Below the pieces are notes generated by a model, which was not told where the DNA came from, searched no databases, and saw only the letters and a program-made list of their open reading frames with translations. Positions 5,218 to 33,471 of a stretch of 64,000 bases of DNA are shown here, piece after piece. The position numbers and the translations under genes are program-made. How positions within the stretch are numbered: position 1 is the stretch's first letter; each line of letters begins with the position of its first letter. Source of the DNA: Methanolacinia paynteri (GTDB lineage: Archaea; Halobacteriota; Methanomicrobia; Methanomicrobiales; Methanomicrobiaceae); NCBI RefSeq assembly GCF_000784355.1, contig NZ_KN360931.1, positions 82,942 through 146,941 on the forward strand, given 5' to 3'.

Positions 5218-5384
5218 TAAATCTGTGCTAAAGCTAAATAAATTGATATAATCGGATGCGTATGCCGCCTGGCATCAATAATTTGCGCGTATAGGCATTT
5301 CTCACCGGATTGTCGGTATTTTTCCATATTTTTTTCCGTTATGGATGCCCTGCCGCAGCCGGTTTGTTCTGAAATCATGCTAAC

Positions 5385-5396
5385 AAATATATAATC
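5385..5396 (+). promoter_or_regulatory. TATA box of the SUI1-like gene
   Basis: AAATATATAATC is centred about 28 bp before ATG 5418. This is the usual archaeal TATA-to-start distance, so the transcript would be leaderless or nearly so. No Shine-Dalgarno site precedes the ATG, which agrees. Confidence 0.5.
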
Positions 5397-5417
5397 AGAT
5401 TTGTAAGGTACAATGTA

Positions 5418-5723
5418 ATGACTGGTGGTATATGTCCAAAATGTGGACTGCCAAAAGAACTGTGTATTTGTGAAGAAGTCGCAAAGGAACAACAGCAGAT
5501 TAGCGTTAAGATCAATAAGAGGCGTTACGGCAAAGAAGTAACAATAATCGAGGGACTGGATCCCTACGATATCGATTTGGATGAATTGCAGAAACATCTG
5601 AAAGGAAAACTTGCCTGCGGCGGCACTGTTAAAGGCAATTCAATCGAACTTCAGGGCAATCACCGTGAACGCGTAAAGAAACTCCTGATGGACAGGGGTT
5701 ACAAACTTGAAAATATAAGTTAG
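5418..5723 (+). CDS. SUI1/eIF1-family translation factor
   Basis: This 101-residue protein is the archaeal aIF1 (SUI1/YciH) type, which helps select the start codon on the small ribosomal subunit. The core from about residue 28 has [13 protein letters not shown]-like basic strands ([17 protein letters not shown]). The diagnostic C-terminal [18 protein letters not shown], followed by [12 protein letters not shown], is also present. The N-terminus carries a [13 protein letters not shown] cluster that could bind zinc, as in many archaeal homologues. It is monocistronic and is followed by a partial family-A repeat. Confidence 0.92.
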
Positions 5724-5790
5724 TTTAACATGAAAATCACGTTGTGATTTACATGAAACAGTGCATGAAATCTTTGTTTCATAAACCTTT
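5724..5790. repeat. Family A repeat, partial copy 3 (AT-rich half only)
   Basis: This copy matches the right half of copy 2. It has hairpin CATG-A-AAATCAC / GTGATTT-A-CATG at 5729-5755, then ATGAAA/TTTCAT at 5765-5782. The GC-rich half is absent. It fills the gap between the convergent ends of the SUI1-like gene and the TadC-like gene, so it may serve both as a terminator. Confidence 0.7.
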
Positions 5791-5793
5791 TTT

Positions 5794-17598: not shown

Positions 17599-17603
17599 AT
17601 TTA

Positions 17604-17620
17604 ATTTTTTTATTTTTTTA
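17604..17620 (+). terminator. T-tract terminator after leuS
   Basis: Two T runs (T6 and T7 split by one A) begin just after the leuS stop. Archaeal transcription terminates at such oligo-T tracts. The convergent small gene ends 20 bp further on. Confidence 0.5.
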
Positions 17621-17640
17621 ATTTGAACAAAAATTATTGA

Positions 17641-17985
17641 TTATTTGTTTTTAACAGCTTCAGTTGCTTTCTTTTTTCTTTCTTTCGTGTTGTAGCCGGT
17701 GACGTACTCCAGGTAGTCCCTGAATCTCCTGTTTGTATCGAGAACTATCTTGTCGGCTTCGTCTTCGGAGAATGAATCATATAGGTCCGATCTTGAATGT
17801 GTGTCGACGCATAAGAGGCTTCCTTTTTCGTTGATCCATGCTTCAAGGCAGCTGAACGAGCCGAATTCTATTTCGTAATGTCCGTCTTTTTTAGTACCGA
17901 CGGCGTCGAAATATTTCTCAAGACCGTCTTTCATCCTGTCTTCGAGGCCGTCTTTGAAACCTCTTTTAATCGAATATTCCTGCAT
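17641..17985 (-). CDS. Conserved methanogen protein of unknown function (DUF5611-like)
   Basis: 114 residues, soluble. The pattern MQEYSIKRGFKDGLEDRMKD then YEIEFGSFSCLEAWI and VDTHSRSDLYDSFSEDEADKIVLDTNRRFRDYLEYVTGY (taken in parts) matches a short family that I associate with methanogens (DUF5611), from memory. There are no catalytic motifs. The C-terminus is basic (KERKKKATEAVKNK). It stands alone between leuS and a PAC2 gene, sharing a 127-bp divergent promoter region with the latter. Confidence 0.65.
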   Translation of the reverse strand: MQEYSIKRGFKDGLEDRMKDGLEKYFDAVGTKKDGHYEIEFGSFSCLEAWINEKGSLLCVDTHSRSDLYDSFSEDEADKIVLDTNRRFRDYLEYVTGYNTKERKKKATEAVKNK

Positions 17986-18112
17986 GCAGTATTATTGTCC
18001 TTCATCGGATTAATTTATTCAGATCGCTATATTTGGTAATTCTGCCCGTTTGAATTGTGCATTATGGGAATGTATATAAACTGTTTCGCCAATGAGATAA
18101 TTAGGGGATTTT

Positions 18113-18838
18113 ATGGAAGATATAAGAATTAAAGCTGAGCCTTCAAAAGGCAAGCACGATATAGCACTTATCGGTTTCCCCGGAAGCGGTCTTGTTGGCA
18201 GCATCTCCATGCAGTACCTTGTTGATAATGCAGGTTTTGAATATGTCGGGAGCATCACCAGCAAGTACTTCCCGCCGATAGTAATGATGATGGACGGGCT
18301 TGTAAACGCCCCGTTGAGAATATATGAAAAGGATTCGATGTTTGCATTTGTTTCGGATATACCGATTCATCCGACAATCAGCTATGAACTGTCGAATACG
18401 ATTATCCAGTGGCTGAAGGACTACGATGTCGGGGAGATCAATGTCATTGCCGGAATTGTGACCAATACCCTGGAAAAGAGGGTGTTCGGTGTCGCAACCG
18501 AGCAGGGTCTGCTCGAAAAAATAAAGGACCACACTGAGATCCTTTCGATGGGAAGTATCTCCGGCGTTCCCGGAAGCATACTCTCGGATTGCAAGGCCCT
18601 TGAGATCCCCTGTATTGGATTCCTCGGGGAAACTGTAAACACCCCGGACCCACGTTCGGCCGTTTCGGTCCTTGAGGTGCTTAACAAGGTATACGAGGAG
18701 TTGAATGTCGATGTCAAACCGCTGATGGAGCAGGCCGAAGAGATAGAGGCGACAATGCAGAAGATGGCGGAACAGGTGCAGAAAACGGAAGAGCAGCAGC
18801 AGGTACCTAAGAAAGAGCACCTGCCAATGTACGGTTGA
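18113..18838 (+). CDS. PAC2-family proteasome-assembly-chaperone-like protein
   Basis: 241 residues. The N-terminal DIALIGFPGSGLVGSISMQYL (first 20 residues quoted loosely around 20-40) is the PAC2 signature. GSITSKYFPPIVMMMDG, IYEKDSMFAFVSDIP and GIVTNTLEKRVFGVATEQ follow in family order. The C-terminal 40 residues are a helical tail rich in Glu and Gln (EEIEATMQKMAEQVQKTEEQ). Eukaryotic PAC2 assists 20S proteasome assembly; the role of archaeal members is inferred only. A paralogue lies at 51248. It overlaps the DUF473 gene region, so the two are probably cotranscribed. Confidence 0.88.
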   Translation: MEDIRIKAEPSKGKHDIALIGFPGSGLVGSISMQYLVDNAGFEYVGSITSKYFPPIVMMMDGLVNAPLRIYEKDSMFAFVSDIPIHPTISYELSNTIIQWLKDYDVGEINVIAGIVTNTLEKRVFGVATEQGLLEKIKDHTEILSMGSISGVPGSILSDCKALEIPCIGFLGETVNTPDPRSAVSVLEVLNKVYEELNVDVKPLMEQAEEIEATMQKMAEQVQKTEEQQQVPKKEHLPMYG

Positions 18839-18849
18839 GGGTGGCAGGA

Positions 18850-19242
18850 ATGAAGATTGCAGCAATTACCGGTATTTCCCCGAATGTAATAGCAGAATTA
18901 AAGAAGGGAAAACCGAGGACTCTTGAACTCCAGAGTGCCCATAACATCATCACTCTCACGGATGTCCTCCCCGGCGATCATGTGTTCATGACGCATATCG
19001 ATCTCGATGATGTGTGCTCGGGCGATCCCGGGATTATAGTTGAAGTCCTCTCTATTACGATAAATATGAAGAGAATGGTCGAATATATCAATCCCTATTA
19101 TTACGAGGAAAAAGAGAGAATGTCGGCCAGGATCCAGGTAAAATATGTTGACAACACTATTGCGAAGGGTATTGACGGAAGGTACTGGGCCAAACCGACT
19201 ATCGTTGACATTCTCCCGTCGGCAGTCTTCCATGCCGGCTAA
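18850..19242 (+). CDS. DUF473 protein
   Basis: About 130 residues from ATG 18850 (MKIAAITGISPNVIAEL). TTG 18835 and GTG 18841 are possible alternatives, but GAGGGTGG lies 5-12 bp before 18850 and favours it. The pattern LQSAHNIITLTDVLPGDHVF, DDVCSGDPGIIVEV and RYWAKPTIVDILPS matches DUF473, a methanogen-restricted family of unknown function. The strand-rich character suggests a small beta-barrel. Coupling to the PAC2 gene upstream is the only contextual hint. Confidence 0.8.
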   Translation: MKIAAITGISPNVIAELKKGKPRTLELQSAHNIITLTDVLPGDHVFMTHIDLDDVCSGDPGIIVEVLSITINMKRMVEYINPYYYEEKERMSARIQVKYVDNTIAKGIDGRYWAKPTIVDILPSAVFHAG

Positions 19243-19307
19243 ATTTTTTTGAAAAAAAAAGATTAATTAACCTGAACAGGCGTATAATATAAGGTAATCT
19301 TTTGTTT

Positions 19308-19382
19308 GGGCCTGTGGCTTAGCCTGGACATAGCGCCGGGCTTCTAACCCGGATGTCGGGGGTTCGAATCCCTCCAGGCCCG
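19308..19382 (+). tRNA. tRNA-Arg (anticodon TCT)
   Basis: The acceptor GGGCCTG (19308-19314) pairs with CAGGCCC (19375-19381), with discriminator G. The anticodon arm is CCGGG-CTTCTAA-CCCGG, giving TCT, which reads AGA. The T-arm contains GGTTCGAATCC. CCA is not encoded. A TATA-like element (TATAATATA) lies about 25 bp upstream. Confidence 0.95.
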
Positions 19383-19385
19383 TTA

Positions 19386-19395
19386 TTTTTTTTTT
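19386..19395 (+). terminator. T10 tract after tRNA-Arg
   Basis: Ten T residues start 4 bp after the discriminator base, a typical archaeal terminator. Confidence 0.6.
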
Positions 19396-19711: not shown

Positions 19712-21721
19712 TTAGAGGACTTTAGTGCCGGGCAACACATCGCGCTTCGGTGTCAAAAGGGATGCCTCGTCACCTGCCGCAAGGATCATTCCCTGCGACT
19801 CGACACCGAACAATTTTGCGGGCTTCAGGTTCGTAACGACTATGACATCGGTACCGACGAGCTCCTTCGGATCGTAGAACTTTGCAATACCGGATACAAT
19901 CTGTCTCTTTTCGTCGCCGAGGTCTACCTGGATCTTCAGGAGTTTATCCGATCCTTCGATCTTTTCGGCTTCGAGAATCTTTGCTGTCTTCATCTCTACA
20001 TTTGCAAATTCGTCAATAGATATCATCTTCTTCTCTTCCTTTGTTGTCGTTGTTCTGTTTTCTTTCTGTTTTGCCTGTTCGACTCTCATGTTCATGGTCG
20101 ACTCGTATTCAGCAATCTTTTCGTCTTCGATCTTCTCAAAAAGTATCTCAGGTTTGTTCAGCTTCGTACCGCTGAATCCGTCCGTTACTTCGGATAGATT
20201 GTGATCGGAAATCTTGTCCACGTAACCAAGCTGCTCCCAGATGTTCTGTGCCTTTTCAGGAATTACCGAATCGAAGAGGAGGGCAAGTGCCTTTACTATC
20301 TGGAGGCAGTTGCGGATTACTTTTTCCGTCCCTTCCCTGTCCTCTTTGATCATCTTCCACGGTGCATTGGTCTGGATGTATGTATTTCCGAACGATGCAA
20401 GAGCCATCATCTCCTCGATAGCGGATTTGAATTCATACTCCCTTGCGGCAGACTCTGCAAGTGCGGTTCTCTTCTTTATCTCTTCAAGGATCTCCTCATC
20501 GGCACCGATATCCGGAATTCCGCCAAGCTTCTTTGATGCGAAGTGGACCGTTCTGTATATGAAATTTCCGAGAGTGTCCACAAGTTCGTTGTTGACTCTC
20601 GCCTGGAACTCTCTCCATGAAAAATTCAGCTCTTTCGTATGGCTCGTGTAGGACAGCAGGTAATACCTGAGATAGTCAGGCGACAGCCCGAGATCGAGAT
20701 AATCGTCATTGGTCCAGACGACATAGCCCCTGCTCTTCGAAAATGTTCTGTCATCTATCTTCACCATTCCGCTGGCAACTATTGAATAGGGGGTCGAGTA
20801 TCCCGCACCTTTCAGGAGTGCCGGCCAGAATATGCAGTGATGATAGATGATGTCCTGTCCGATGAAATGGGTAATGGGTGCATCTCCCTTCCAGAACTGC
20901 TCCCAGTTCCCGCCGGTCTTTTCCGCCCATTCTTCCGTGAACGCCATATAGCCGATCGGTGCATCTACCCAGACGTATACGACGAGATCGTCTCTTCCCG
21001 GGAATTTGACTCCCCAGTCGAGTGTCCGTGTAATGCACCAGTCATGAAGCCCTTCGTTTATCCAGCCCATCGCGTAATTTCTCGCGTTGAGCGTCCCTTT
21101 CAGTTCCGGGAGGAAACCCTTCAGGAAATCATTGAAATCGCCAAGTTTGAAGAAGAAGTGATCCTGTTCCCTCATCTCGGCTTTTTCCCCGCAGATCTTG
21201 CAGACCGGGTCCAGAACTTCGCCGGGTTCAAGGTGCTTGCCGCAGCCCTGATCGCATTCGTCTCCTCTTGCCTTCTCCCCGCAGTGCGGGCATGTGCCTT
21301 CGACGTACCTGTCCGGCAGGAACATCTCGCAATGTGGGCAATAGCACTGGCTGACGGTCTTTTCGTATATGTATCCGTTATTTATCAGGTCTGTGACAAT
21401 CGATCTGGTTCTCTTGTGGTTGGCGGGGTCGTCCGTCATCCCGAACCTGTCGAAGATCACTTCCATCTTCCTGAAAGTCTCGTAAAAATGAGTATGATAT
21501 CTCTCACATATTTCACGGGGTGAGATCCCTTCCGCCTCGGAGCTGATTACGACGGGAGTTCCGTGGTTGTCAGATCCGCAGATAAAGACCACTTCCTCTC
21601 CGCAGTGCCGGAGGAAACGGACGTAGAAATCGGCAGGAACGTATGTTCTGAGGTGACCTATATGGCACGGGCCGTTGGTATATGGAAGCCCGCAGGTCAC
21701 AAGAACGGGGGATTTATTCAT
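19712..21721 (-). CDS. metG: Methionyl-tRNA synthetase
   Basis: 669 residues. The class I HIGH element is GPCHIGHLRTY at about 17-27, and the KMSKS variant is TFSKSRGY at about 327-334. The connective-peptide zinc knuckles are CPHCEMFLPDRYVEGTCPHC at about 125-145, with a second set CDQGCGK and CKICGEK near 155-180. The C-terminal 110 residues (from ISIDEFANVEMKTAKI) are the dimerising tRNA-binding EMAP-like domain, fused here as in many methanogens. It is divergent from the 21764 gene across 42 bp. Confidence 0.96.
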   Translation of the reverse strand: MNKSPVLVTCGLPYTNGPCHIGHLRTYVPADFYVRFLRHCGEEVVFICGSDNHGTPVVISSEAEGISPREICERYHTHFYETFRKMEVIFDRFGMTDDPANHKRTRSIVTDLINNGYIYEKTVSQCYCPHCEMFLPDRYVEGTCPHCGEKARGDECDQGCGKHLEPGEVLDPVCKICGEKAEMREQDHFFFKLGDFNDFLKGFLPELKGTLNARNYAMGWINEGLHDWCITRTLDWGVKFPGRDDLVVYVWVDAPIGYMAFTEEWAEKTGGNWEQFWKGDAPITHFIGQDIIYHHCIFWPALLKGAGYSTPYSIVASGMVKIDDRTFSKSRGYVVWTNDDYLDLGLSPDYLRYYLLSYTSHTKELNFSWREFQARVNNELVDTLGNFIYRTVHFASKKLGGIPDIGADEEILEEIKKRTALAESAAREYEFKSAIEEMMALASFGNTYIQTNAPWKMIKEDREGTEKVIRNCLQIVKALALLFDSVIPEKAQNIWEQLGYVDKISDHNLSEVTDGFSGTKLNKPEILFEKIEDEKIAEYESTMNMRVEQAKQKENRTTTTKEEKKMISIDEFANVEMKTAKILEAEKIEGSDKLLKIQVDLGDEKRQIVSGIAKFYDPKELVGTDVIVVTNLKPAKLFGVESQGMILAAGDEASLLTPKRDVLPGTKVL

Positions 21722-21763
21722 GCCTAATTTTTTAGCTATTAATTGTATAAATATCTGATATTC

Positions 21764-22552
21764 ATGAAAAGAAGATATGATCTTGTCCTCCGGTCTCTTG
21801 GTTCGGAATACATGAGCGAACCCGATTCCAAAGACCTTGCGAAATGGATTTCAGGACAGAGGGGATCACGGTGCGATCTGATTTCCTATAATATCGAAAA
21901 ATCTCTCCTTGCCCAGAAAAAGGCGGATATCCCGTGTACGGGTGGTGTTTATTATTCGGCGAGGGTCTCTGAATCGATCGGAGGAATTAAATCCGGCTGT
22001 CTTTGCTCAGAACCGTATCCTGTTCTGGATGATATATCACTGGATGCCCAAAGGGTCCGGAAATTACGAAAAGGATGTTATATGGCACTGCCCGCACCTT
22101 CTTCTCTCGGGATACAGGATTATTACTTCAACGATCACGCGGATTTAATTTCGGCGCTGTGCGAGGTGTACAGGAAGATGATGCGTGAGCAGAGAGATCG
22201 CGGCATAAAAGGGCATATAGTTGTTTCAGATCGGTTTTCGGAGGTTGAGCTTGAAGAACTGTCCGATCCAAAGTCATTCTTCTTTTCACCTTCAGGAGGA
22301 TCGAAAGCGATCTCTTCCATTCTTGAATACCAGCAGGATATTGCGGTCTTCCCGGAAAAACTGGATATATTATTTGAAATAATGCCGGAATACGAGATAA
22401 ATTCCGTGACCGTAGTTGATCCCGGGGAGAGTGATTATGAAAGAGTCCTTTCCGAATTCGATCCCGATTCTGTTCTTTCGGGGGGTTATTGCAGGGGATG
22501 CGGAATGGATTACTGGGAGAATCTTAAAGAAAAATCATATGTTGTTGCCTGA
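21764..22552 (+). CDS. Conserved protein of unknown function
   Basis: About 262 residues from ATG 21764; an upstream TTG at 21743 is unlikely because it overlaps the TATA-like TTGTATAAATA. It is soluble, with no signal or membrane segment. Visible landmarks are LAKWISGQRGSRCDLISY near 27, YYSARVSESIGGIKSGCLC near 66, a central helical part, SFFFSPSGGSKAISSILEY near 185, and a C-terminal GGYCRGCGMDYWENL with a CxxC pair. I recognise no family. The last 18 bp overlap the convergent DHH gene. Confidence 0.65.
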   Translation: MKRRYDLVLRSLGSEYMSEPDSKDLAKWISGQRGSRCDLISYNIEKSLLAQKKADIPCTGGVYYSARVSESIGGIKSGCLCSEPYPVLDDISLDAQRVRKLRKGCYMALPAPSSLGIQDYYFNDHADLISALCEVYRKMMREQRDRGIKGHIVVSDRFSEVELEELSDPKSFFFSPSGGSKAISSILEYQQDIAVFPEKLDILFEIMPEYEINSVTVVDPGESDYERVLSEFDPDSVLSGGYCRGCGMDYWENLKEKSYVVA

Positions 22553-23530
22553 GGTGTCTTCATAATATTTTTCCGCCACCTCAAAAAGGCGTTTGAAATG
22601 CCTGTTTTTCCCGAATAAAAAGGTAGATATCCTGTCGGATATTGAATAATCGAACTGACCTCCGGCGGCAGGGGGGTGTCCTCCTCCTCCGAATTCCCGT
22701 GCGATAAGGTGGCTTACAGGCGGCTTAGATCTTATCGAGAACTTTCCGGTGTCTGAAAAAATCACCTCAATATCGGTGTCCATCTTGTCCCTTATTGCAT
22801 GTGCGGTTTCGCTCGGGTACCCGTACATCGGTGCGAATGCGACTTTGTACCGCCCTTCATAGATCCTGGATTTTTTAATGCTCTTTTCGATTGCTTCTGC
22901 TTTTTCTTTTGAAATTTCCTCGTATATTTTTTCGATTTCTTTATTGACGATCTTTCCCGAGATAAAGCAGTCCCTGATCATATCGAGGTTCTTCCACTTG
23001 CTTCCTACTTCTCCGAGAATACGTGATCTGGGGTCCTCGTGCTTCCACAGGTCATAGTCGCAGACTACCCTGGCGATCTCTTTTGCATGTTCATCGCCCG
23101 GCATGAGATCCCTGGCAACTATCCCTGTTGCGCATGTTTCGGTATCAATTTTAAAATAGTCCGTAAGATTTGAGATCTCTTCTTTTTCCGCATCGTTCCA
23201 GCGGTGGTGATCTCTCCATTCTATATTCCACCCGTTTTCTCTTGCGGATTTCAGGTATTCGGATGATTTTTTATGATATCCTATATCCGATATGCTTATG
23301 GTGTCCCCTTTGCCCGGCAACTTTGAAACTATTTTGAGGTTTTCCTCGAACTTGCTTATCGAGGACCAGATTGTAAATAATTCCCCGTATTTTAGCCTGT
23401 GGATTGCATCGCAGCCTGCTGCATCAAGGTCGTTATGTGTGAGATGAATGATCTTTGATTTTCTGTCGTTAATCGCTCTTAAAAACTTATCCTGATTTTC
23501 TTCTTTCTTTCTTTTCTTTGATTTAAGCAT
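22535..23530 (-). CDS. DHH-family phosphoesterase
   Basis: 331 residues. The family order is visible: LTHNDLDAAGCDA near 31 (metal-binding DLDA), SDIGYHKKSSEYL near 81, the RDHHRWND motif near 106 giving the family name, a helical linker, and the DHHA1 C-terminal GGGGHPPAAGGQ near 285. Such proteins hydrolyse phosphodiesters, for example oligoribonucleotides or cyclic dinucleotides; the substrate here is not assignable. No membrane or PAS/CBS domain is attached. The N-terminal 20 residues are highly basic. Confidence 0.85.
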   Translation of the reverse strand: MLKSKKRKKEENQDKFLRAINDRKSKIIHLTHNDLDAAGCDAIHRLKYGELFTIWSSISKFEENLKIVSKLPGKGDTISISDIGYHKKSSEYLKSARENGWNIEWRDHHRWNDAEKEEISNLTDYFKIDTETCATGIVARDLMPGDEHAKEIARVVCDYDLWKHEDPRSRILGEVGSKWKNLDMIRDCFISGKIVNKEIEKIYEEISKEKAEAIEKSIKKSRIYEGRYKVAFAPMYGYPSETAHAIRDKMDTDIEVIFSDTGKFSIRSKPPVSHLIAREFGGGGHPPAAGGQFDYSISDRISTFLFGKNRHFKRLFEVAEKYYEDTSGNNI

Positions 23531-23993
23531 CTTTTAATCCCGTTATTAAAAATTAGGTTTAATATTAATATATAACATTCTTAAAGGCTTTGGAGATCCA
23601 GGATTGAAATGACAATTCAACTGTAATATTTATTTAATCAATTAAATATTGTTAAATTGCTTATTCTAATCGAAATACTTATCTAATTGTTGCCGGATTG
23701 CTATATAGAATAAGTACTCATATGTAGTAATGATTTTATTGGGTGGAATGAGATTTCTACCTGTAGTGTCATGAATTATTTGTTGACTTTCGTAATTTGT
23801 TGAATTTAAAATATGGACTGACATTCAAGAAAATTTGGAAATTTAAATCGAGAGGACGTGATCATTCCCATGATTTACATATTATCCATATAATCCGGTT
23901 TTCAGTAGCGACTATTAAATAAAAATAAAATCCGGGATATTCCGGAATTTACCGACATTCTATGCATTAAGCATCAACGGCAAGGTGTTTGAA
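23531..23993. promoter_or_regulatory. Long AT-rich upstream region of the chemoreceptor gene
   Basis: There is no gene in 463 bp. The clearest element is the palindrome 23631-23648 (TATTTAAT, CA, ATTAAATA), a candidate operator. Further downstream are CCGGGATATTCCGG at about 23932-23945 and AAGGTG at 23982-23987, the Shine-Dalgarno site for ATG 23994. The rest is plain AT-rich sequence. Confidence 0.4.
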
Positions 23994-25805
23994 ATGAAAT
24001 TTGAAGGATTAAAAGAGTTAATGTCTTCCCCGGAACCTGCAGAAGAAAGACTTGAATTACTTGCATATCAGTATAATGAGCGTTTAAAGGAGCAGGCGCT
24101 TGTAAACGGGGTCTCGAATTTTTTATTCGATACGTCTCTTGAGAGAGAATATATTCTGAAAAAAGTTGTCGAATTGATCCCTCCCGGCTGGCAATATCCC
24201 GAGATCACCGTTGCGAGGTTTAAGTACAGGAATTATGATATAAAAAGCCCGAATTTCAGGGAAACCCAGTGGAAGCAGAGAGTAACGTTTACCGATGCAA
24301 ACGGCATTGAGGGCTTTCTGGATGTCCTTTACCTGGAAAAAATGCCCGAAGATTACGAAGGTCCGTTTTTAAAAGAGGAGAGAAACCTGATAAATGTCAT
24401 CGGGAGTCTTCTGCCTGCCTCGATGAACATTTTCAACCGCAACGAGGAGATGAAGGAAGCAATTGACGACATCCTTGACATCTCAAAAGAGGTGGAAAGG
24501 GGGAATATCAAGAAAAGGGTCGAGCCTTCAAACCATTCCGGAGACCTGAGAAATGTTGCCGAAGGTATAAACAGCATTCTGGATGCATATTCAGTTCCCT
24601 TTGAATATCTGGTAGAAACTCTTGAGGAATATTCATCATGCAGATTTGGTAAGCGTATAGATGATTCGGCTAATTTCCAGGGCGAATTCCTTGTTCTGAA
24701 GAACAGCATAAATAACCTTGGTACGATTGTCAGCGATGTCGTATCCGAGATCGGACGTATTGCCGATGAGTTTGAAAATGGAAACTTCCGTGCCAGAGTC
24801 GATGAAAGTCTCGTATTCGAAGGTGACATGGCAGCAATAAAGAGAAGTCTTAACAATGTTGCAGAGACGTTTTCTGGTTTGGTATCCGAGGTGAAGAGTT
24901 CTGTCGAAAAAATAAATGACAACTCTGCGGAAGTCAACAAGGGAGCCGGTGATATGGCCGGAGCAACGGAAAAAGTTGCGCAGTCTGCCTCCAACTCTGC
25001 TGTGCTTACCAGAAAACTGAATGAGAGGATCGACAGTATCAACCAGCAGATAACAGGATTGTCGTCATCCAACCAGGAGATAGCGGCTGCCTCAAACGAG
25101 GTTATGGAAAAAACAGGCTATGTTGTCGAAATTGGGAAAGTCGCCCAGTCCTCGGGGGATGATTCGCGCGAACTGATGCATTCTGTTGAAGAGATTGCGA
25201 AGAGCAGTGTAGACGAGATCAATTCCCTGTCTGAGCAGATAAAAACGGTTGGCCGTGTTGTCAAACTCATCAATGATATTACAGGGCAGATCAATCTTCT
25301 CGCGCTCAATGCAGCTATTGAGGCTGCAAGGGCAGGGGAGCACGGAAGGGGCTTTGCGGTAGTTGCAGGTGAGGTTAAGAATCTGGCCGGCGAGGCAAGA
25401 GCTGCAACGGACAATATCGAAAAGGTCGTAACAGACGTTCAGGCCTCCAGCGAAAAGACCGCCTCTGCAATAAACAAGGCCAATGAAGAGATTATCAACA
25501 GTGTCGAGAGCGTGAACAAAACTATCGATGGCCTCAACACTATCATAAACAATGCAGAGACCATAAATTCGGATATAAAGACAATTGTCCATGCAATTGA
25601 TGAACAGGCTGCGATAGCTAATAATGTCTCCAACAACACGAGGGAGCTTACCGGACTCACGGGAGATGTCTTCCGGGAAATTGAGGAGCTGGCAGCCCTT
25701 GCCGAAGAGACCAGCGCTTCGGTCGAAGAGATCGGAGTTGCGATCAACGAAGTATCGTCGCTTGCGGATGCTGTCGTCGTCGATATGAAAAAATATAAAA
25801 TTTGA
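23994..25805 (+). CDS. Soluble methyl-accepting chemotaxis protein
   Basis: 603 residues from ATG 23994 (AAGGTG at 23982-23987); GTG 23985 is the alternative. There is no membrane segment, so it is a cytoplasmic receptor. Residues 1-140 form a sensory domain ending in [23 protein letters not shown]-like in pattern. Residues 150-300 hold repeated HAMP-like linkers ([37 protein letters not shown]). The coiled-coil signalling domain peaks at [20 protein letters not shown] near 435, the invariant hairpin tip that contacts CheA/CheW. No che genes are in the window. Confidence 0.92.
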
Positions 25806-25814
25806 GTGACCAGT

Positions 25815-25833
25815 TCTCAGAACCGGTTTTTGA
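25815..25833 (+). terminator. Hairpin after the chemoreceptor gene
   Basis: CTCA-GAACC-GGTTT-TTGAG folds 10 bp after the stop. It is a weak candidate, since archaeal termination usually relies on T tracts, and only a T5 run is included. Confidence 0.3.
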
Positions 25834-26036
25834 GATTTGTAATTTAAATCCCTCTTTTTTTGCGTTAAGTTTCAGGGCATCCGTATGAGATGCTCCCGGA
25901 ATATTCTTCAATCTGATTCGGGAAAAAAAAGCGTGATGATTGCCTGGTATAATAATCATATTTAAGATATTTGGGGGTATTTCTTCTCAAATCAAATCAT
26001 TTATTAGTCAGAATAACCAATATTGTATGCTCACCT

Positions 26037-26110
26037 GCCTCAATAGCTCAGCCCGGGAGAGCGCCAGACTGAAGATCTGGTTGTCCCCGGTTCAAATCCG
26101 GGTTGAGGCA
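26037..26110 (+). tRNA. tRNA-Phe (anticodon GAA)
   Basis: Acceptor GCCTCAA pairs with TTGAGGC, with discriminator A. The anticodon arm is CCAGA-CTGAAGA-TCTGG, giving GAA. The T-arm is CCCCGGTTCAAATCCGGG. CCA is not encoded. A T8 tract follows at 26114-26121. Its 3' end is partly duplicated at 28009-28031. Confidence 0.95.
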
Positions 26111-26533
26111 CTCATTTTTTTAACTAGCTGTTCCTGCTGTCTTTAATTTTCTCTGGAGAAGAACACTATTAGTAAATGATGCTCCTGACTTGGCAAGATT
26201 CAACCCTCGATGGAAGAAGATAAAAACTCACCAGTCTTATATCGTAATACTTGAAGGAGATCATTTAGGTCCTTTCTACTGTCTCTTTTACAAGATTCCT
26301 GATAATCCGGGAGTAGCTATCTACAATGGCATCTATAATCTGAAAAAAAGCCTCAGCGGGGATGCTGGTCCATCCCGACAAGCTCTACCTTAAACGATCT
26401 GTATTGAATTTTTGATGTAATATTGATAAATAATGGATTTTCATATATTTCAATAAGCTTATGGTATTTTATAGAAATACACATTCTTATGCTTTTTAAT
26501 GCCAAAATCCGCAAGAATAGGAAGTGATTTTTT
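26111..26533. other. Left part of the tRNA-Phe islet, no confident gene
   Basis: This 423-bp AT-rich stretch lies between tRNA-Phe and the pentapeptide-repeat gene. The only long frame (TTG 26190 to 26393) has no recognisable family and runs into the short repeat at 26355, so I do not call it; it could be a remnant. AGGAAGTGAT at 26519-26528 is a strong Shine-Dalgarno site for the next gene. Confidence 0.5.
26355..26401 (+). repeat. Short flanking repeat, left copy
   Basis: A 47-bp element with hairpin GGGATG/CATCCC followed by CAAGCTCT and TAAA-CGATCTG. A similar copy in the same orientation lies at 27915-27962, so the two enclose the pentapeptide-repeat gene. The hairpin core also matches the centre of family B repeats. 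Confidence 0.7.
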
Positions 26534-27916
26534 TTGTGTGACTATATTTTTAGAAATGGTGAGAATTGTCAGAAACCTGTGTTAGAAGGGCATAATTTTT
26601 GTCCTCTACATACTCCATTTACAAATGATGCAGATTTTCAAGATGATGGGTGGCTCTGGTTATTAAAAGAAACAGAGGTGAGTCATAAGATTAAATTGGG
26701 TGATTTTAATTTTGAGGGTGCAAAACTAAATTGGTTCCAAACCCCCATTCAAATTACAGGAGATATCAATTTTAATGATGCAGAGATTAATGGATATGCA
26801 TCATTTGAAAATGTAAAAATCGACGGAGATGCCTGTTTTCAAGATGCAAAGTTTAAAGGACCTGTAATTTTTAGCGGTATGGAAATAACGAAATTTGCCA
26901 ATTTTAATGGCGCAGAATTTCTCGAAAACGTGAGTTTTGATAACGTTCATTTCCATAAGGATGCTGATTTTAATGAAGCAAAATTTAATGGTGAAATTAC
27001 ATCTTTTTTTAAGGCAATATTTATTAATTCTGCTTGGTTTAATGATGTCAAATTCGGTGAAGAAGCTGAATCAATTAATTTTAATCAAGCAATATTCAAA
27101 GGTTGTGTTTGGTTTAATTATACGCAATTTGGAAAAAATGTCAATTTTAAAGATTCAAAATTTGAAAGCGATGCTCTATTTGTAAGAACAAAATTCGGTG
27201 GATCTACTACATTTAGTAATGCGGAATTCGGGAGACGTGCTGGTTTTACTGGTGCAGAATTTGGTAAAGATGTCTGGTTTGAAGATGTAAAATTCAATGG
27301 GGACGCCATTTTTTATGATGTAAAATTTGGTAACAGAAACTGTGGCGGAAATGTTGTGTTTCAAGGTTCATATTTCAGAAGAGATGCAAAATTTAATGGT
27401 GCTTTATTTTTTAGTAACCTATCTATTATTCCTATCCATAGTTTAGGGTCTGTTAATTTATCCGGAACTATGTTTTCGTCACCGAAAATGAAGGAAGATG
27501 CCTGCAGGGTAGCAAAGAATCAATGTATTAACCTCGGTGATAATCACGAAGCTGACATCTATTATTATAATGAAATGGAAGGGAAACGGAAGCAAAAACC
27601 GAAATGTCGCAGATGGCTGGAATATATTTTTATTCAATCAATATTTGGATATGGGGTTAAACCTTTGCGAACTTTTTGTTTTTGGGTTGTAACCATCCTC
27701 ATATTTGCGTTGATATATTATAATTTTCAAACACTTGAATCAGGATCAGAATTTTTTGAATACCTCTATTTCAGTGCGACTACGGCAATGACACCAGGTT
27801 TTGGCGGGTACAAAGTTATTACTCCATGGCAATTGTTGGCACTTATTGAAGCATTTTTTGGAACATTCATGTGGGCTGCTTTCATAACTATATTTGCAAG
27901 GAAGTATATGCGTTAG
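26534..27916 (+). CDS. Pentapeptide-repeat protein with C-terminal ion-channel module
   Basis: 460 residues from TTG 26534, chosen because AGGAAGTGAT ends 6 bp upstream. The N-terminus CDYIFRNGENC then FCPLH (C2 and later C, C, H) looks like a small zinc knuckle. Residues 50-300 are pentapeptide repeats, A(D/N)FxxxxF type (FNGAEFLENVSFDNVHF), forming a right-handed beta-helix. Residues 375-460 have two membrane helices flanking a pore-loop-like YFSATTAMTPGFGGY, as in two-TM potassium channels (Ion_trans_2). It is much more AT-rich than its neighbours, sits in the tRNA-Phe islet and was probably acquired. Ligand and ion are unknown. Confidence 0.85.
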   Translation: MCDYIFRNGENCQKPVLEGHNFCPLHTPFTNDADFQDDGWLWLLKETEVSHKIKLGDFNFEGAKLNWFQTPIQITGDINFNDAEINGYASFENVKIDGDACFQDAKFKGPVIFSGMEITKFANFNGAEFLENVSFDNVHFHKDADFNEAKFNGEITSFFKAIFINSAWFNDVKFGEEAESINFNQAIFKGCVWFNYTQFGKNVNFKDSKFESDALFVRTKFGGSTTFSNAEFGRRAGFTGAEFGKDVWFEDVKFNGDAIFYDVKFGNRNCGGNVVFQGSYFRRDAKFNGALFFSNLSIIPIHSLGSVNLSGTMFSSPKMKEDACRVAKNQCINLGDNHEADIYYYNEMEGKRKQKPKCRRWLEYIFIQSIFGYGVKPLRTFCFWVVTILIFALIYYNFQTLESGSEFFEYLYFSATTAMTPGFGGYKVITPWQLLALIEAFFGTFMWAAFITIFARKYMR

Positions 27917-27962
27917 TGGGGATGCTGTTTCATCCCTGCAAGCTCTCTCCTAAAACAATCTG
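27915..27962 (+). repeat. Short flanking repeat, right copy
   Basis: It starts inside the stop codon of the pentapeptide-repeat gene. It matches 26355-26401 at most positions, with GGGATG..CATCCC and CAAGCTCT conserved. Confidence 0.7.
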
Positions 27963-28008
27963 CGAAGTTGATATTTTTTTGATATAGAAATGTCCCCATA
28001 TTGTTTAG

Positions 28009-28031
28009 AATCTGGGTTGAGGTACTAATTT
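28009..28031 (+). repeat. Degenerate copy of the tRNA-Phe 3' end (attachment-site remnant)
   Basis: AATCTGGGTTGAGGTACTA here matches AATCCGGGTTGAGGCACTC at the tRNA-Phe 3' end (26095-26113) with three differences, and ATTT follows in both. TGTCCCC of the T-stem also recurs upstream at 27990-27996, with altered spacing. It lies 1.9 kb from the tRNA in direct orientation, as expected of an attR site left by integration. Confidence 0.65.
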
Positions 28032-28132
28032 CTTCAATTTTTGAGTGTTTATTAAAAACTGTATCCATTTATTCTAGTATCGACCTAAAACTATATATCC
28101 CCTGATTCTCATTGTCCCTATGAGGGAGTTTT

Positions 28133-29203
28133 ATGGGAAAAAAAGAGGCAGGGCCTGAAGAGGGAAAAAGAGACTGTTCCATAAATAATATTAATTCTGT
28201 TTTCGGGGAGGATTTTTTTAAAATGCTCCTTATGAGCGCAAATGTATGGGTATCCTTTCTGGATCCCGACACACGTGTGAAGATATGGAATTCAGCGGCC
28301 GAGAGAATGAGTGGTTATTCTGCCGAAGAAGTTATGGATAGCAGCGAGATCTGGATGAAGCTGTATCCCGATCCGGGTTATAGAAAAGCCATTACTGAAA
28401 AAATTCATAAACTGCTCTCCGAAACGGAGAGCCTCGATAAATTTGAATCGAAGATCCTGAGAAAAGATGGAGAAACGCGAATAATTTCATGGAATACAAA
28501 GGAGATCAGGAACGATGCAGAAAAATGCGAGGGTTATTTCATCATCGGCCTGGATATTACCGACATAGTTCGTGCAGAAACCGGTCTCAACGTCCTCCTG
28601 ATGAATGCGAACGTGTTGATAACGTTTCTTGACAGGCAGGGCAGGATCAGAATCTGGAACCGTTTTGCTGAAGAAATATCCGGTTATGAAGCTGCGGAAG
28701 TCCTCGGCGCCAATGAAATCTGGAAAAAACTTTATCCCGATCCTTTATACAGGAAACAGATTACTAAAAATATCCTTGATATTGTATCCGACTCTCAGAG
28801 ACGGGAAATGTTCGAGACCGAGATTCAAACAAAATCCGGAGAAAAAAAGAACATTCTCTGGAATACCAGGATGATGTATGATTATGACAGAAACCTTGAC
28901 GGATATGTTGCAATAGGACTGGATATTACAAGGGAAAAGGAGATGCAGGCGGAGATCTTCAGGTATATCGGCCATTCTGTGATGCGGCTGAAATATCCTG
29001 TAGAGATTATACGGGACAACCTGTACGAACTCCATGAGAAAATAAAAGGCGGAGATATCGGGACGGAAGAAATACTGTTGGAATTAATGATTGAAATAAA
29101 GAATTCCGAGCAGATACTCATAAATCTCCAGGACCTTAACAAAGCGGTTCAGAGTTCATTCAAAGAAATGCCTGCTGAAATGAAGGATTTTTTACTGCAA
29201 TGA
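28133..29203 (+). CDS. Tandem PAS-domain protein without kinase domain
   Basis: 356 residues, soluble. PAS 1 spans about 25-145 (ANVWVSFLDPDTRVKIWNSA to YFIIGLDITDIV) and PAS 2 about 150-270 (ANVLITFLDRQGRIRIWNRF to YVAIGLDITREK). The two are close copies, both with LYPDP(G/L)YRK, so they arose by duplication. The last 85 residues are helical and contain FRYIGHSVMRLKYPVEIIRD, resembling a histidine-kinase dimerisation helix with a possible His, but no ATPase domain follows. It overlaps the next gene by 4 bp. It is probably a ligand- or redox-sensing partner of that protein. Confidence 0.8.
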   Translation: MGKKEAGPEEGKRDCSINNINSVFGEDFFKMLLMSANVWVSFLDPDTRVKIWNSAAERMSGYSAEEVMDSSEIWMKLYPDPGYRKAITEKIHKLLSETESLDKFESKILRKDGETRIISWNTKEIRNDAEKCEGYFIIGLDITDIVRAETGLNVLLMNANVLITFLDRQGRIRIWNRFAEEISGYEAAEVLGANEIWKKLYPDPLYRKQITKNILDIVSDSQRREMFETEIQTKSGEKKNILWNTRMMYDYDRNLDGYVAIGLDITREKEMQAEIFRYIGHSVMRLKYPVEIIRDNLYELHEKIKGGDIGTEEILLELMIEIKNSEQILINLQDLNKAVQSSFKEMPAEMKDFLLQ

Positions 29204-29760
29204 GGCAGATCATGAAAAGTTTACTTGAAGAAATTTCGGAAAAACACCTGATCCTTATCCTGTCCGAGCCCCTGGAGCTAAAAAAGAGGAACATTGAGAT
29301 AATAAAAGATGTCACAAACGAAGGCTTCAGTGTCATCGTATTAACTACAAACAATCCCTACTCAATTCTGGTGAAAGATTACCAGAAAGAAGGTATCGAT
29401 ACTGAAAAGGTGTTCTATATCGATGCAATCACCAGGTACGCGGTAGGCAAAGAGACTGAAGATGCCAAAAACTGCTTATTTGTAAGTTCTCCTTCGGACC
29501 TGACCTCCATGGGAATAGCCATATCGAAAGCCCTGAAAGAAACGACGAACAACAAAGTATGCGTTCTCCTGAATACGGTAAACAGTATGCTTATCTATAT
29601 TACACCTGAAAATCTGATTAAATTCATTCATTTCATCGCCAACAAATTGAGAATCTTTGACATGTCGGGGATCTTTCTAGCGGTTGAAAAAGGGATAGAT
29701 CCACCGACTCTGGTACAGCTGCAGAGTTTTATCGATGATGTGATAGACAAAGAGGATTAA
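29200..29760 (+). CDS. RecA/KaiC-fold-like protein lacking a P-loop
   Basis: 186 residues. The strand-helix alternation (HLILILSEPLELKKRNIEII, GFSVIVLTTNNPY, KVFYIDAITRY, CLFVSSPSDLTSMGIAISKAL, KVCVLLNTVNSMLIYITPEN, GIFLAVEKGIDP) resembles methanogen KaiC/RAD55-like signalling proteins. The place of Walker A is taken by SEPLELKKRN, so ATP binding is unlikely. The start overlaps the PAS-PAS stop by 4 bp, a coupled pair. ATG 29212 (MKSLLEE) is an alternative start. Function is unknown; a sensory output module is inference. Confidence 0.65.
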   Translation: MRQIMKSLLEEISEKHLILILSEPLELKKRNIEIIKDVTNEGFSVIVLTTNNPYSILVKDYQKEGIDTEKVFYIDAITRYAVGKETEDAKNCLFVSSPSDLTSMGIAISKALKETTNNKVCVLLNTVNSMLIYITPENLIKFIHFIANKLRIFDMSGIFLAVEKGIDPPTLVQLQSFIDDVIDKED

Positions 29761-29765
29761 AAATT

Positions 29766-30341
29766 TTATTTGGCTTTTCTTGAAAACCTGCCGACTCCTC
29801 TTACAGGCTTGGGCGCCACCTGGGCAAACGAACCGCCGGCACTCCTGACATCCTCGATGGTGTAGAATGCATTGGGGTTGTATTCTTTAAGTATGCCAAG
29901 CACCTCTGGAATCTGTTTTCTTTTAATAACCGTGTAGATAATTGAAACGTTTCCAAACTGGCCCTGTGCTTCGGTACTTGTGGTCCTGAACCCCGAACTC
30001 TTGAGATACTCTATAAGATCAAAGGCCGAGTACTGGGTAATTATCCTTATAACCGAGACCCCCATCGCAACTTTTTCCTCGATAAGTATGCCTACAAAGT
30101 TGCCTACCGCAAAACCAAGTGCATAAGCTAAAAATGCAGAATAGTGGCCCATATTTGTAAGAACCTGGCTTATTGCCATAAGCCAGATGCTGATCTCGAA
30201 AAAACCGACAATGGGAGCCAGGTACTTTAGTCCCCTCGATATGAATATGATCCTCAGCGTACCAAAAGAAACGTCAGCAATTCGTGCAAAAAATATGAAT
30301 ATTGGCAGAATTACGTATGTCTGGACTTCCACCGGTATCAT
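29766..30341 (-). CDS. DUF2179 membrane protein (UPF0316-like)
   Basis: 191 residues. Three membrane helices fall in the first 100 residues (YVILPIFIFFARIADVSFG, YLAPIVGFFEISIWLMAIS, FLAYALGFAVGNFVGILIE). The C-terminal DUF2179 domain has GFRTTSTEAQGQFGNVSIIY, VIKRKQIPEVLGILKEYNP and FYTIEDVRS. Bacterial homologues with this domain order (UPF0316) are of unknown function. The C-terminal 20 residues are basic and family-variable. It converges with the RecA-like gene 5 bp away and stands alone. Confidence 0.85.
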   Translation of the reverse strand: MIPVEVQTYVILPIFIFFARIADVSFGTLRIIFISRGLKYLAPIVGFFEISIWLMAISQVLTNMGHYSAFLAYALGFAVGNFVGILIEEKVAMGVSVIRIITQYSAFDLIEYLKSSGFRTTSTEAQGQFGNVSIIYTVIKRKQIPEVLGILKEYNPNAFYTIEDVRSAGGSFAQVAPKPVRGVGRFSRKAK

Positions 30342-30402
30342 GATTAACCTCCAAGGTTATCTTATCGGAATTAAAGAAAATAATTATACCGGAAAGAGCA
30401 GA

Positions 30403-32196
30403 TCATATTTTTTTCGGCAGGATTACAATAAATGTACTTCCTTCGCCCGGAACACTCCGGACTTTGATATCGCCGTTGTGAAGGGAGATATATCTCTTCG
30501 CAATTGAAAGCCCGAGGCCGATTCTTCCAGTTCCCCTGACGAGGTCCGAAGAATTTCTTATAAAAAACGGTTCGAAGATGTCGTTGACGGAATCCGGCGG
30601 GATTCCGATTCCGTTGTCCGTAATGCTGATAATATGATTCGAATCGTCTTCCCTGTAACTGATTGACACTTTTTTGGGATCCGAATTATACTTCACAGCG
30701 TTTAAAATAATACCTTCAAAGACCTGATAGATCCGGTCTCTGTCTGCATTGAATCTCACGGAATCGCCGAGATCGACAATTACTTCGGCATTGCAGCGAA
30801 TTTTGTTGATATTCAGTATCTCTTCAACAAGCTGTTTTAATTCGATCTCTTCGATATTCAGATTTATTTTAAATGATTCGGAGAGTCCGGCTTCCAGTAT
30901 TTTTTCTACAATTTCGCATTCTCTTTCAGTACTTAAAAGACACTTTTCAATTATGGATGCAACCTCGGGGCTCATCTCCGCCTGGTAATCCTTATCCGTA
31001 AGCAGGTGCAGGTAGCCTAAAATGGGCTGGAGCGGCGTTCTCAGTTCATGTGCAGCAGTGTTTATGAAATTTGCCCATCTTCTCTTTTCGAATTCAAGAA
31101 TAAGTTCTTCCTTGTCGGGGAGGTTGTTTCCGATTTCATGCAATGCAACAAGGACTTCCTCAGTCTTTCCGGCGGATGTAATTGCACCGATTATTATCAG
31201 TAATGTCTTATTTTCACCTTTTATGCTGATCTTTGTTTCAAAAGTGGTTGTGCAGCCTGTGTCAATGACTTCCTCAAAATACCTGGAGAATTTTATCTTT
31301 GAATCTTCCGGGATAAATTGTTCCACGGGCTTTCCGATATAGTCCGATGTTTTTATATCATAATCCCCGGCCATCTGCAAGTCGAAGGATTTTATAGTTC
31401 CGTTGAGATCCAGGACAAATATGAGATCATTGGAAGATCTTAAAAATTCAAGCATCTTCTTTTTAATTTCTTCCGCATTTTTTCTTTCTTTTTCCTGCTC
31501 GGTTATGTCCAGGATAGTACACTCTATATGGCCCAGTGAATCATTGAAATGCGATGAAAGGGAGATTATTTTTTTTCCGTTCCCTGAATAAAGTTCGAAT
31601 TTCTTATTGTCAATGTCGTAGAACGTTTCAGGTTCCAGTTCATCCATATCGATCAGGGATTCGATCTTCTTTCCGATTATCTCGTCATCATGAACTCCAA
31701 GGATCTCTTTGGCTTTTTCATTGGCATCGAGAACCCTGAAATTGTTTATATCGAATATAAGCATCCCTGCTCCTGCATTCCTGAAAAAAGCCCGGTATTT
31801 GATATTTACAAGACCTGAGGATTCTGCCAGGTATGTGGTAGTGATCACCACCCATATGAACATGGCGACATTAAGGCCTGCAATGAACGGATCTACAGGA
31901 AGCCCCGTATAATAATAATATGATGAAACGCCTAAAAATCCGGCAATTAATAATACTGACGCCTGCATCCCTTTTTTCGGGTACCACAGGGATATCAGGA
32001 GTATAGGAATATAATAGATCTGTGGAACAATGAATATCCCGGGGTAATTCCATTGGGTTTCCGGTATATTGAATGCAAGGATACTCACCAATACCGATAA
32101 AAGAATGAAGCAGGCTATAACGAAGATCCTGATAATTTCCGTATCTGAATAATTATTGGATATACTGAAACAGGCTTCGTTTTGATCAACTTTCAT
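30403..32196 (-). CDS. Membrane-bound PAS histidine kinase
   Basis: 597 residues. The N-terminal 25-135 has about four membrane helices (IFVIACFILLSVLVSILAF, FIVPQIYYIPILLISLWY and others). Two PAS-like domains follow at about 140-245 (MLIFDINNFRVLDANEKAKE) and 255-365 (FVLDLNGTIKSFDLQM). The kinase core has H-box INTAAHELRTPLQPILGYL near 390, N-box LNAVKYN near 510, G1 ITDNGIGIPP and G2 GLGLSIAKRYI. It autophosphorylates at the H-box His. No response regulator lies next to it, so the partner is unknown. Confidence 0.92.
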   Translation of the reverse strand: MKVDQNEACFSISNNYSDTEIIRIFVIACFILLSVLVSILAFNIPETQWNYPGIFIVPQIYYIPILLISLWYPKKGMQASVLLIAGFLGVSSYYYYTGLPVDPFIAGLNVAMFIWVVITTTYLAESSGLVNIKYRAFFRNAGAGMLIFDINNFRVLDANEKAKEILGVHDDEIIGKKIESLIDMDELEPETFYDIDNKKFELYSGNGKKIISLSSHFNDSLGHIECTILDITEQEKERKNAEEIKKKMLEFLRSSNDLIFVLDLNGTIKSFDLQMAGDYDIKTSDYIGKPVEQFIPEDSKIKFSRYFEEVIDTGCTTTFETKISIKGENKTLLIIIGAITSAGKTEEVLVALHEIGNNLPDKEELILEFEKRRWANFINTAAHELRTPLQPILGYLHLLTDKDYQAEMSPEVASIIEKCLLSTERECEIVEKILEAGLSESFKINLNIEEIELKQLVEEILNINKIRCNAEVIVDLGDSVRFNADRDRIYQVFEGIILNAVKYNSDPKKVSISYREDDSNHIISITDNGIGIPPDSVNDIFEPFFIRNSSDLVRGTGRIGLGLSIAKRYISLHNGDIKVRSVPGEGSTFIVILPKKI

Positions 32197-32318
32197 AAAA
32201 TATAAAAGATGTTCATCTTACCAGAATAAAGGATTTTTGTATTTGATTTAATGTTTTTTTCAACTTATTACTGCTTGAGAAGTGTTTTTTATAATAGCAT
32301 AAAAAGATCTTGTAGATC

Positions 32319-32999
32319 ATGTTTCCTTATGTCACTGTAAATCTTGCAATGAGCGCAGACGGCAAGCTCTCAACTACCGGGCGAAGACAGGTGAAGATCT
32401 CCGGGCAGAATGATTTCAGGAGGGTGGATATTCTGAAGGCGGAAAACGATGCGATTATGGTCGGGATTGGAACCGTGCTTGCAGACGATCCGTCGCTTAC
32501 CGTCAAATCGCCGGAGTTAAAGGAAAAACGCCTTTCTTCCGGAAGGGATGAGAATCCCGTCAGGATAATCGTCGACAGCAAAGCAAGAACGCCGTGCGAT
32601 GCCGAAATACTGCATAAGGGTCCGGGAAAGAGAATAATTGCTGTATCGAAATCCGCGGACCAGAATAAGATTGAAGAGCTGGGAAAATATGCGGAGATCA
32701 TTCAGGCCGGTGATGAAAGGGTGGATCTCAGAATTCTCCTTGAGAAACTTGCTGAAAAGGGTATTGAAAAACTGATGGTCGAAGGCGGGGGAAGCCTGAT
32801 CTGGTCGCTTTTCGAAGAGAACCTGGTAGATGAATATTATACGTGCATAGGGAACATCATTATCGGAGGTGCATCGGCGCCGACACCCGCAGACGGAACC
32901 GGTTTCGTTTTCGAGAATGAATTCACAAAACTTGAGATAGCCGCTATGGAAAAGATTGATGCCGGCGTTCTTTTAAGGTGGAAGGTAATTAAAAATTGA
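32319..32999 (+). CDS. arfC: 2,5-diamino-6-ribosylamino-pyrimidinone 5'-phosphate reductase
   Basis: 226 residues, RibD C-terminal-domain family. It reduces the ribose of the early riboflavin/F420 intermediate with NAD(P)H. Motifs: PYVTVNLAMSADGKLSTTGR at 3-22 (split), NDAIMVGIGTVLADDPSLTV near 46, PVRIIVDSKARTP near 80, the KLMVEGGGSLIWSLFEENLVDE region near 150 with the G-G-G nucleotide turn, and the terminal helix. Archaeal single-domain forms of this length match MJ0671. The gene is monocistronic. Confidence 0.92.
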   Translation: MFPYVTVNLAMSADGKLSTTGRRQVKISGQNDFRRVDILKAENDAIMVGIGTVLADDPSLTVKSPELKEKRLSSGRDENPVRIIVDSKARTPCDAEILHKGPGKRIIAVSKSADQNKIEELGKYAEIIQAGDERVDLRILLEKLAEKGIEKLMVEGGGSLIWSLFEENLVDEYYTCIGNIIIGGASAPTPADGTGFVFENEFTKLEIAAMEKIDAGVLLRWKVIKN

Positions 33000-33012
33000 T
33001 TTTTGTTGATCT

Positions 33013-33471
33013 TTAATCCCTGTATCCGATAATCTCGTCGAAGATCTTATAGGACTGGCCGTTCTGCATCGTTGCAGTCACTGTCACCCTGTCTTCCCCT
33101 TTTGTTCCCTGGATCTCGACATCGGACCCCATCTTCGGTTCGATGTTCTCGGTAACCATACTGCCGTCCGAGAGATATACCGTCGTGGATACGGATTCTG
33201 TCATGTATAATCCTTTTCCGCCGGTGAACTCGACATTTATCATCGCGCTGATCGGGTCCTTGTATGCCTTTGCGCCGACTTCATATCCTGAAGGAACCTG
33301 GTCCGTAGGGGTCGGATTAAGAGAGAACCCCGACTGCTGTGAAGATTCTGTAGCCGTTGTAGTCACTGTTGTTCCTGCCGGTGACGAAGAGCCTCCCGAA
33401 TCGGTACAGCCTGATGCAAAAATTAAGGCAAGAATCACTAAAACCAGAAATGATACCACAATTCTTTTCAT
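33013..33471 (-). CDS. Secreted lipoprotein of unknown function
   Basis: 152 residues. The signal peptide MKRIVVSFLVLVILALIFAS ends in a lipobox ASGC (Cys22), followed by a Ser/Thr/Gly-rich linker (about 23-50) common in methanogen surface proteins. The folded part (residues 55-152) is strand-rich (YKDPISAMINVEFTGGKGLY, VTVTATMQNGQSYKIFDE) and probably immunoglobulin-like. It is divergent from the next gene across 91 bp. No ligand or enzyme motif is seen. Confidence 0.8.
   Translation of the reverse strand: MKRIVVSFLVLVILALIFASGCTDSGGSSSPAGTTVTTTATESSQQSGFSLNPTPTDQVPSGYEVGAKAYKDPISAMINVEFTGGKGLYMTESVSTTVYLSDGSMVTENIEPKMGSDVEIQGTKGEDRVTVTATMQNGQSYKIFDEIIGYRD

What the first reader, a model, noticed from the sequence alone, without database searches (positions are those of the whole stretch)
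26037..28031. Small integrated islet at tRNA-Phe with a degenerate attachment-site copy
Seen: the last bases of tRNA-Phe (GGGTTGAGG-C-ACT plus flank) recur at 28009-28031 with three differences, in direct orientation, 1.9 kb apart. Between them is AT-rich DNA with one confident gene and two 47-bp direct repeats at 26355 and 27915 that bracket it. Known: integrases commonly use tRNA 3' ends as attB. Inferred: the islet is the remnant of an integrative element, or was moved by one, and now holds only its pentapeptide-channel cargo. No integrase is visible.
Basis: partly seen in the sequence, partly recalled or inferred. Interest (0 to 1): 0.7.

Follow-up and report, generated by a model that had tools for sequence, protein, structure and literature searches.

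The report
Decayed mobile-element islet at tRNA-Phe
This 1.9-kb stretch is the worn-down remnant of a mobile DNA element that once inserted into a methanogen's phenylalanine-tRNA gene; it lost its integrase and nearly all other genes but still carries one intact channel-like cargo gene, and apart from revealing a little-described element family it is an ordinary genomic fossil.

Summary
The end of tRNA-Phe recurs at 28009-28037 (24 of 29 bases). Two congeners have an empty site: in one (chromosome length identical to that published for Methanolacinia petrolearia) window positions 26123 and 28009 are contiguous and share a single 29-bp copy. The islet is therefore an insertion at tRNA-Phe, specific to this lineage among those compared. 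Those run tRNA, integrase, membrane-protein genes, ATPase, att copy, with the ATPase on the tRNA's strand, as here. Best reading: a deletion derivative of such an element, with integrase and probably 8-16 kb lost, both ends kept, and an intact pentapeptide-repeat/channel gene between ATPase and attR. The 47-bp repeats bracketing the gene are not att sites; they belong to a hairpin repeat present about 17 times in the genome, which also follows the gene's homologues in a tail-gene cluster. This is a decayed integrative element of the CIME type: ordinary in kind, though its parent family appears undescribed in the papers I could search.

The parts
26037..26111 (+). tRNA-Phe (GAA), intact; target gene
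   Evidence: ARAGORN
26095..26123 (+). attL: 3' end of tRNA-Phe plus 12 bp of flank
   Evidence: direct repeat; single copy in the congener's empty site
26155..26350 (+). C-terminal remnant (about 65 codons, no stop) of the element's P-loop ATPase gene; profile match spans 26139-26384
26350..26394 (+). copy 1 of the dispersed hairpin repeat (GGGGATG..CATCCC), abutting the ATPase remnant
26534..27916 (+). intact 460-aa gene, TTG start: N-terminal Cys/His motif, Pentapeptide_3 repeats, C-terminal Ion_trans_2 (two-helix channel) domain
   Evidence: Pfam E 5.4e-35 and 6.5e-10; beta-solenoid model, pLDDT above 90 in much of the repeats but low in the channel part; dN/dS about 0.12-0.13 against its homologues
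27910..27954 (+). copy 2 of the hairpin repeat, starting at the gene's stop codon
28009..28037 (+). attR: displaced, degenerate copy of the tRNA-Phe 3' end, joined to the native right flank

Best explanation
The islet (about 26112-28031) is what is left of a tRNA-targeting integrative element. Shown: it is an insertion with one target-site copy at each end, and it contains the C-terminus of the ATPase that ends intact relatives of such elements, in the same orientation relative to the tRNA. Inferred: a tyrosine integrase, now lost, recombined the element's attP with the 3' end of tRNA-Phe and restored the tRNA; the displaced 3' end became attR and drifted. A deletion from just inside attL into ATPase codon ~247 then removed the integrase and probably 8-16 kb. 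The pentapeptide-channel gene entered between the ATPase and attR, plausibly by recombination at the hairpin repeat, and is kept under purifying selection, so the islet is now a static, CIME-like genomic scar with one working cargo gene.
For: Empty site in G001: window 21148-26123 and 28009-33055 align as neighbours sharing 29 bp; G002 has tRNA-Phe followed directly by the right-flank gene. Intact relatives: G003 has tRNA-Ser, int, ATPase, with an 18-bp tRNA-end repeat 38 bp after the ATPase match (17.9 kb); G012 has a 20-bp repeat pair around int and ATPase (17.2 kb); two more elements at tRNA-Thr and tRNA-Glu have the same order. The ATPase remnant is the only trace of this ATPase in the window's genome. 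tRNA-Phe carries a decayed integrase-like stretch in another genus, G009. The cargo is under purifying selection. With one repeat-to-repeat unit (1560 bp) removed, the ATPase-to-attR distance would be 99 bp, within the 35-300 bp of intact elements.
Against: No integrase fragment survives in the islet, so the link to a specific integrase rests on relatives. None of the integrases of this family that I checked for a neighbouring tRNA sits at tRNA-Phe, and the one at tRNA-Phe (G009) is only a weak, frameshifted match. No intact element with this cargo gene was found, so whether the cargo arrived before or after the deletion is undecided. att copies were not found for the tRNA-Thr and tRNA-Glu elements.
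Confidence: 0.87

Rival explanations
1. The islet is not mere debris but a minimal non-autonomous element: both att copies remain usable and an integrase encoded elsewhere can excise or mobilise it in trans.
For: Both att copies are retained; the genome encodes related integrases elsewhere, e.g. G000:C33:4674-5753, 40% identical to the G012 integrase.
Against: attR differs in 5 of 29 positions and no second copy of the islet or of its ATPase remnant exists in the genome or its congeners.
Confidence: 0.06
2. Two separate events: an old element decayed at tRNA-Phe to attL, ATPase end and attR, and the channel gene was later carried in as a repeat-bounded 1560-bp unit by homologous recombination between hairpin repeats. 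This is a finer version of the best explanation, not an alternative to integration.
For: The gene is bracketed by direct copies of a dispersed repeat; homologues in a tail-gene cluster are followed by the same repeat; removal of one unit gives a normal ATPase-to-attR distance.
Against: The homologues have only a downstream copy, so the unit is not seen as a free cassette; copy 1 extends as a ~96-bp match to the post-gene segment in G001, which also fits a plain duplication.
Confidence: 0.4
3. The islet is an ancestral segment deleted from the two congeners through recombination of the 29-bp repeats.
For: Recombination between direct repeats would also leave one copy.
Against: Both congeners lack it, it is 11 points lower in GC than the window, and it holds a mobile-element gene remnant. 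Loss would still imply an earlier integration.
Confidence: 0.05

Closest known systems
CIME (cis-mobilizable element), decayed integrative element keeping attL and attR (definition in PMC5704250)
   Same: No integrase or transfer gene, both attachment sites retained at a tRNA gene, cargo left between them
   Different: Archaeal; the parent is not shown to be conjugative; mobilisation in cis was not observed
Intact tRNA-integrated elements of Methanomicrobiales found here (G003 tRNA-Ser, G012 tRNA-Thr, G007 tRNA-Glu, G012 non-tRNA site)
   Same: ATPase is the last gene before attR, on the tRNA's strand
   Different: They have an integrase and a membrane-protein module; the islet has only the ATPase end and an extra channel gene
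pT26-2 plasmid family (PMC6972569), e.g. pMEFER01
   Same: Membrane-protein genes including a PEGA-type protein, ATPase at the end of the block, tRNA integration; the ATPases are distantly similar (hhalign 93% over 98 columns)
   Different: The t26-6p-like core protein was not matched and no other core protein gave a convincing match; the paper restricts the family to Thermococcales and Methanococcales

Membership tests
CIME / decayed integrative element | Integration and transfer genes lost | tested here: met
   No integrase match within the islet; only an ATPase C-terminus remains
CIME / decayed integrative element | attL and attR retained, single attB in the empty site | tested here: met
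CIME / decayed integrative element | Mobilisation in cis after capture by another element | not testable with these tools
   needs excision assays or reads
Methanomicrobiales tRNA / integrase / membrane-protein / ATPase element family | ATPase homologue as last gene, same strand as target tRNA | tested here: met
   C-terminal 65 codons only, 64-71% identical; orientation as
Methanomicrobiales tRNA / integrase / membrane-protein / ATPase element family | Integrase next to the tRNA and membrane-protein module | tested here: not met
   absent from the islet; hence filed as a remnant, not a functional member
pT26-2 plasmid family | Seven shared core genes | tested here: not met
   Parent elements compared with pMEFER01: only the ATPase is distantly similar

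The most novel reading that the evidence does not exclude
The islet is a fossil of an undescribed, phylum-wide family of 8-18 kb tRNA-integrating elements with a membrane-protein module and a HerA/FtsK-like ATPase, functionally parallel to pT26-2 plasmids, which ferry pentapeptide-channel genes between archaea.
Probability: 0.3. Interest if true: 0.5.

Novelty: new member of a known kind. Interest (0 to 1): 0.3.

Why it matters
It documents, with an empty site and intact relatives, how an archaeal integrative element decays into a tRNA-anchored islet that leaves a selected cargo gene behind. It also points to a scarcely described family of integrated elements: the ATPase profile matches 15 of 197 sampled genomes of the phylum, with no match by tblastn in the phage or plasmid collections.

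Tried and rejected
Integrase fragments in the islet: none. The 47-bp repeats as attachment sites: rejected, they are a genome-wide hairpin repeat. Similarity between the tRNA end and the ATPase gene (an attP inside the ATPase): looked suggestive by eye, but homology to the ATPase stops at about 26155, so it was dropped. Viral-contig scans for the ATPase and the species-wide genome scan for the channel gene returned nothing. att copies for the tRNA-Thr, tRNA-Glu and tRNA-Leu elements: not found by exact-seed or ungapped search. The ATPase fold model was too poor to compare (mean pLDDT 45.5). pT26-2 membership: failed.

Full report
Observation. tRNA-Phe(GAA) lies at 26037-26111. Its 3' end plus 12 bp of flank (26095-26123) recurs in direct orientation at 28009-28037 with 24 of 29 bases identical. 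No other place in the downstream 7.9 kb scores as high, and shuffles reach at most 12.5 against 16.5. The DNA between is 34.1% GC against 45.3% for the window.

Empty sites. In G001, a congener whose chromosome length (2,843,290 bp) equals that published for Methanoplanus (now Methanolacinia) petrolearius (PMC3035365), window positions 21148-26123 and 28009-33055 align to neighbouring DNA that overlaps by exactly one 29-bp copy (sequence). In a second congener, G002, the tRNA is also followed directly by the right-flank gene. The islet is thus an insertion at tRNA-Phe absent from both congeners, and its edge falls at the tRNA end.

A second gene trace. Positions 26155-26350 are DNA-similar (74-75%) to two other genomes, where they are the 3' end of a 321-323-aa ATPase gene. 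A genome search finds this as the only match for the ATPase in the window's genome, 71% identical over residues 247-315. The family has a Walker A (GSTGTGKT) and a Walker B (IFYDE) and only weak matches to TrwB/FtsK/HerA-type ATPases in Pfam, PHROGs and the PDB. 'HerA/FtsK-like' is therefore a tentative label.

Intact relatives. In G003 a tRNA-Ser (838137-838220) is followed by an integrase (838334-839380), some 15 kb of further genes including membrane proteins, the ATPase (855136-856104) and then, at 856142, an 18-bp copy of the tRNA-Ser 3' end, which ends a 17.9-kb element. In G012 a 20-bp repeat pair (1294177, 1311347) encloses the integrase (1294294-1295340) and the ATPase (1310086-1311045). 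Two further elements, at tRNA-Thr in G012 and tRNA-Glu in G007, have the same order: tRNA, integrase, membrane-protein genes, ATPase last, all on the tRNA's strand. A fifth, in G003 near tRNA-Leu, has the ATPase facing the tRNA, so the layout is common but not universal. In the window the ATPase end is on the tRNA's strand and points to attR, as in the four elements.

Mechanism. The simplest history is integration into tRNA-Phe by a lost tyrosine integrase, then a deletion from just inside attL into ATPase codon ~247. Loss of 8-16 kb is inferred from the sizes of intact relatives, not observed. The source of 26124-26154 is unknown. That tRNA-Phe is a usable target in this family is supported by G009, where a frameshifted integrase-like stretch lies just downstream of tRNA-Phe (E about 2e-4, weak).

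Cargo. The 460-aa gene (26534-27916) has a Cys/His motif at the N-terminus, Pentapeptide_3 repeats and an Ion_trans_2 pore domain. The model gives a confident beta-solenoid and an unreliable channel part. Homologues occur only in this genus among 60 relatives: one in the same genome (G000:C5) and one in G001, each on the opposite strand within a cluster with baseplate and tail genes. Over 144 codons of the C-terminal domain dN/dS is about 0.12-0.13 against both, although dS exceeds 1 and so is only rough. The gene looks functional; ion specificity and role are unknown.

The 47-bp repeats. A GGGGATG..CATCCC hairpin pattern occurs 17 times in the window's genome, 8 and 2 times in its congeners, with none for the reversed control pattern. 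Most copies belong to a longer intergenic repeat. The two islet copies and the copies downstream of the homologues form a divergent subset. They therefore do not mark the element's ends. Because one copy abuts the ATPase remnant and one the gene's stop codon, recombination at them is a plausible entry route for the gene; removing one unit would leave 99 bp between the ATPase and attR, against 35-300 bp in intact elements. This is inference.

Comparison. A decayed element that lost integration and transfer genes but retained attL and attR is called a CIME in bacteria (PMC5704250). Archaeal integrases prefer tRNA 3' ends (PMC8371274). The parent elements resemble pT26-2 plasmids in layout (PMC6972569), but only the ATPase shows distant similarity (93% over 98 columns, E about 1e-4); the t26-6p-like protein does not. 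I found no paper describing the parent family in the literature held here, which covers only open-licence papers.

Verdict. It is a new example of a known kind, of modest interest.

Noticed in passing
L023 (G000:C5) 4699-5811 and L022 (G001) 4997-6187: A homologue of the channel gene sits on the opposite strand inside a tail-gene cluster (baseplate J, baseplate/tail proteins, a peptidoglycan-binding-domain protein) at the same place in two species, which looks like a moron in a provirus or contractile tail system.
   Followed up: partly
G000 genome, 17 places, e.g. L054 2340, L058 21, L059 12, L063 70; window 26358 and 27918: A dispersed intergenic hairpin repeat (GGAGCAAAAGGGGATGCTCGTCCATCCCCTTTGCGACTTATCGCGATCAGGGGGAGGG...) occurs in the genus; several copies lie within 75 bp of contig ends, as if they broke the assembly.
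   Followed up: partly
L080, L079, L081, L076/L084, L077/L085: Intact 8-18 kb integrated elements with an integrase, a membrane-protein module and a HerA/FtsK-like ATPase; the ATPase profile hits 15 of 197 genomes across the phylum.
   Followed up: partly
L118 (G009) 17224-19390: Another genus has its own small islet at tRNA-Phe with a frameshifted integrase-like stretch and two to three small genes.
   Followed up: partly
L080 12881-14655: The spike-like large protein gene of the G012 tRNA-Thr element appears split, and part is near-identical to the copy in the other G012 element, suggesting recombination or gene conversion between elements; the stretch also contains masked bases.
   Followed up: no
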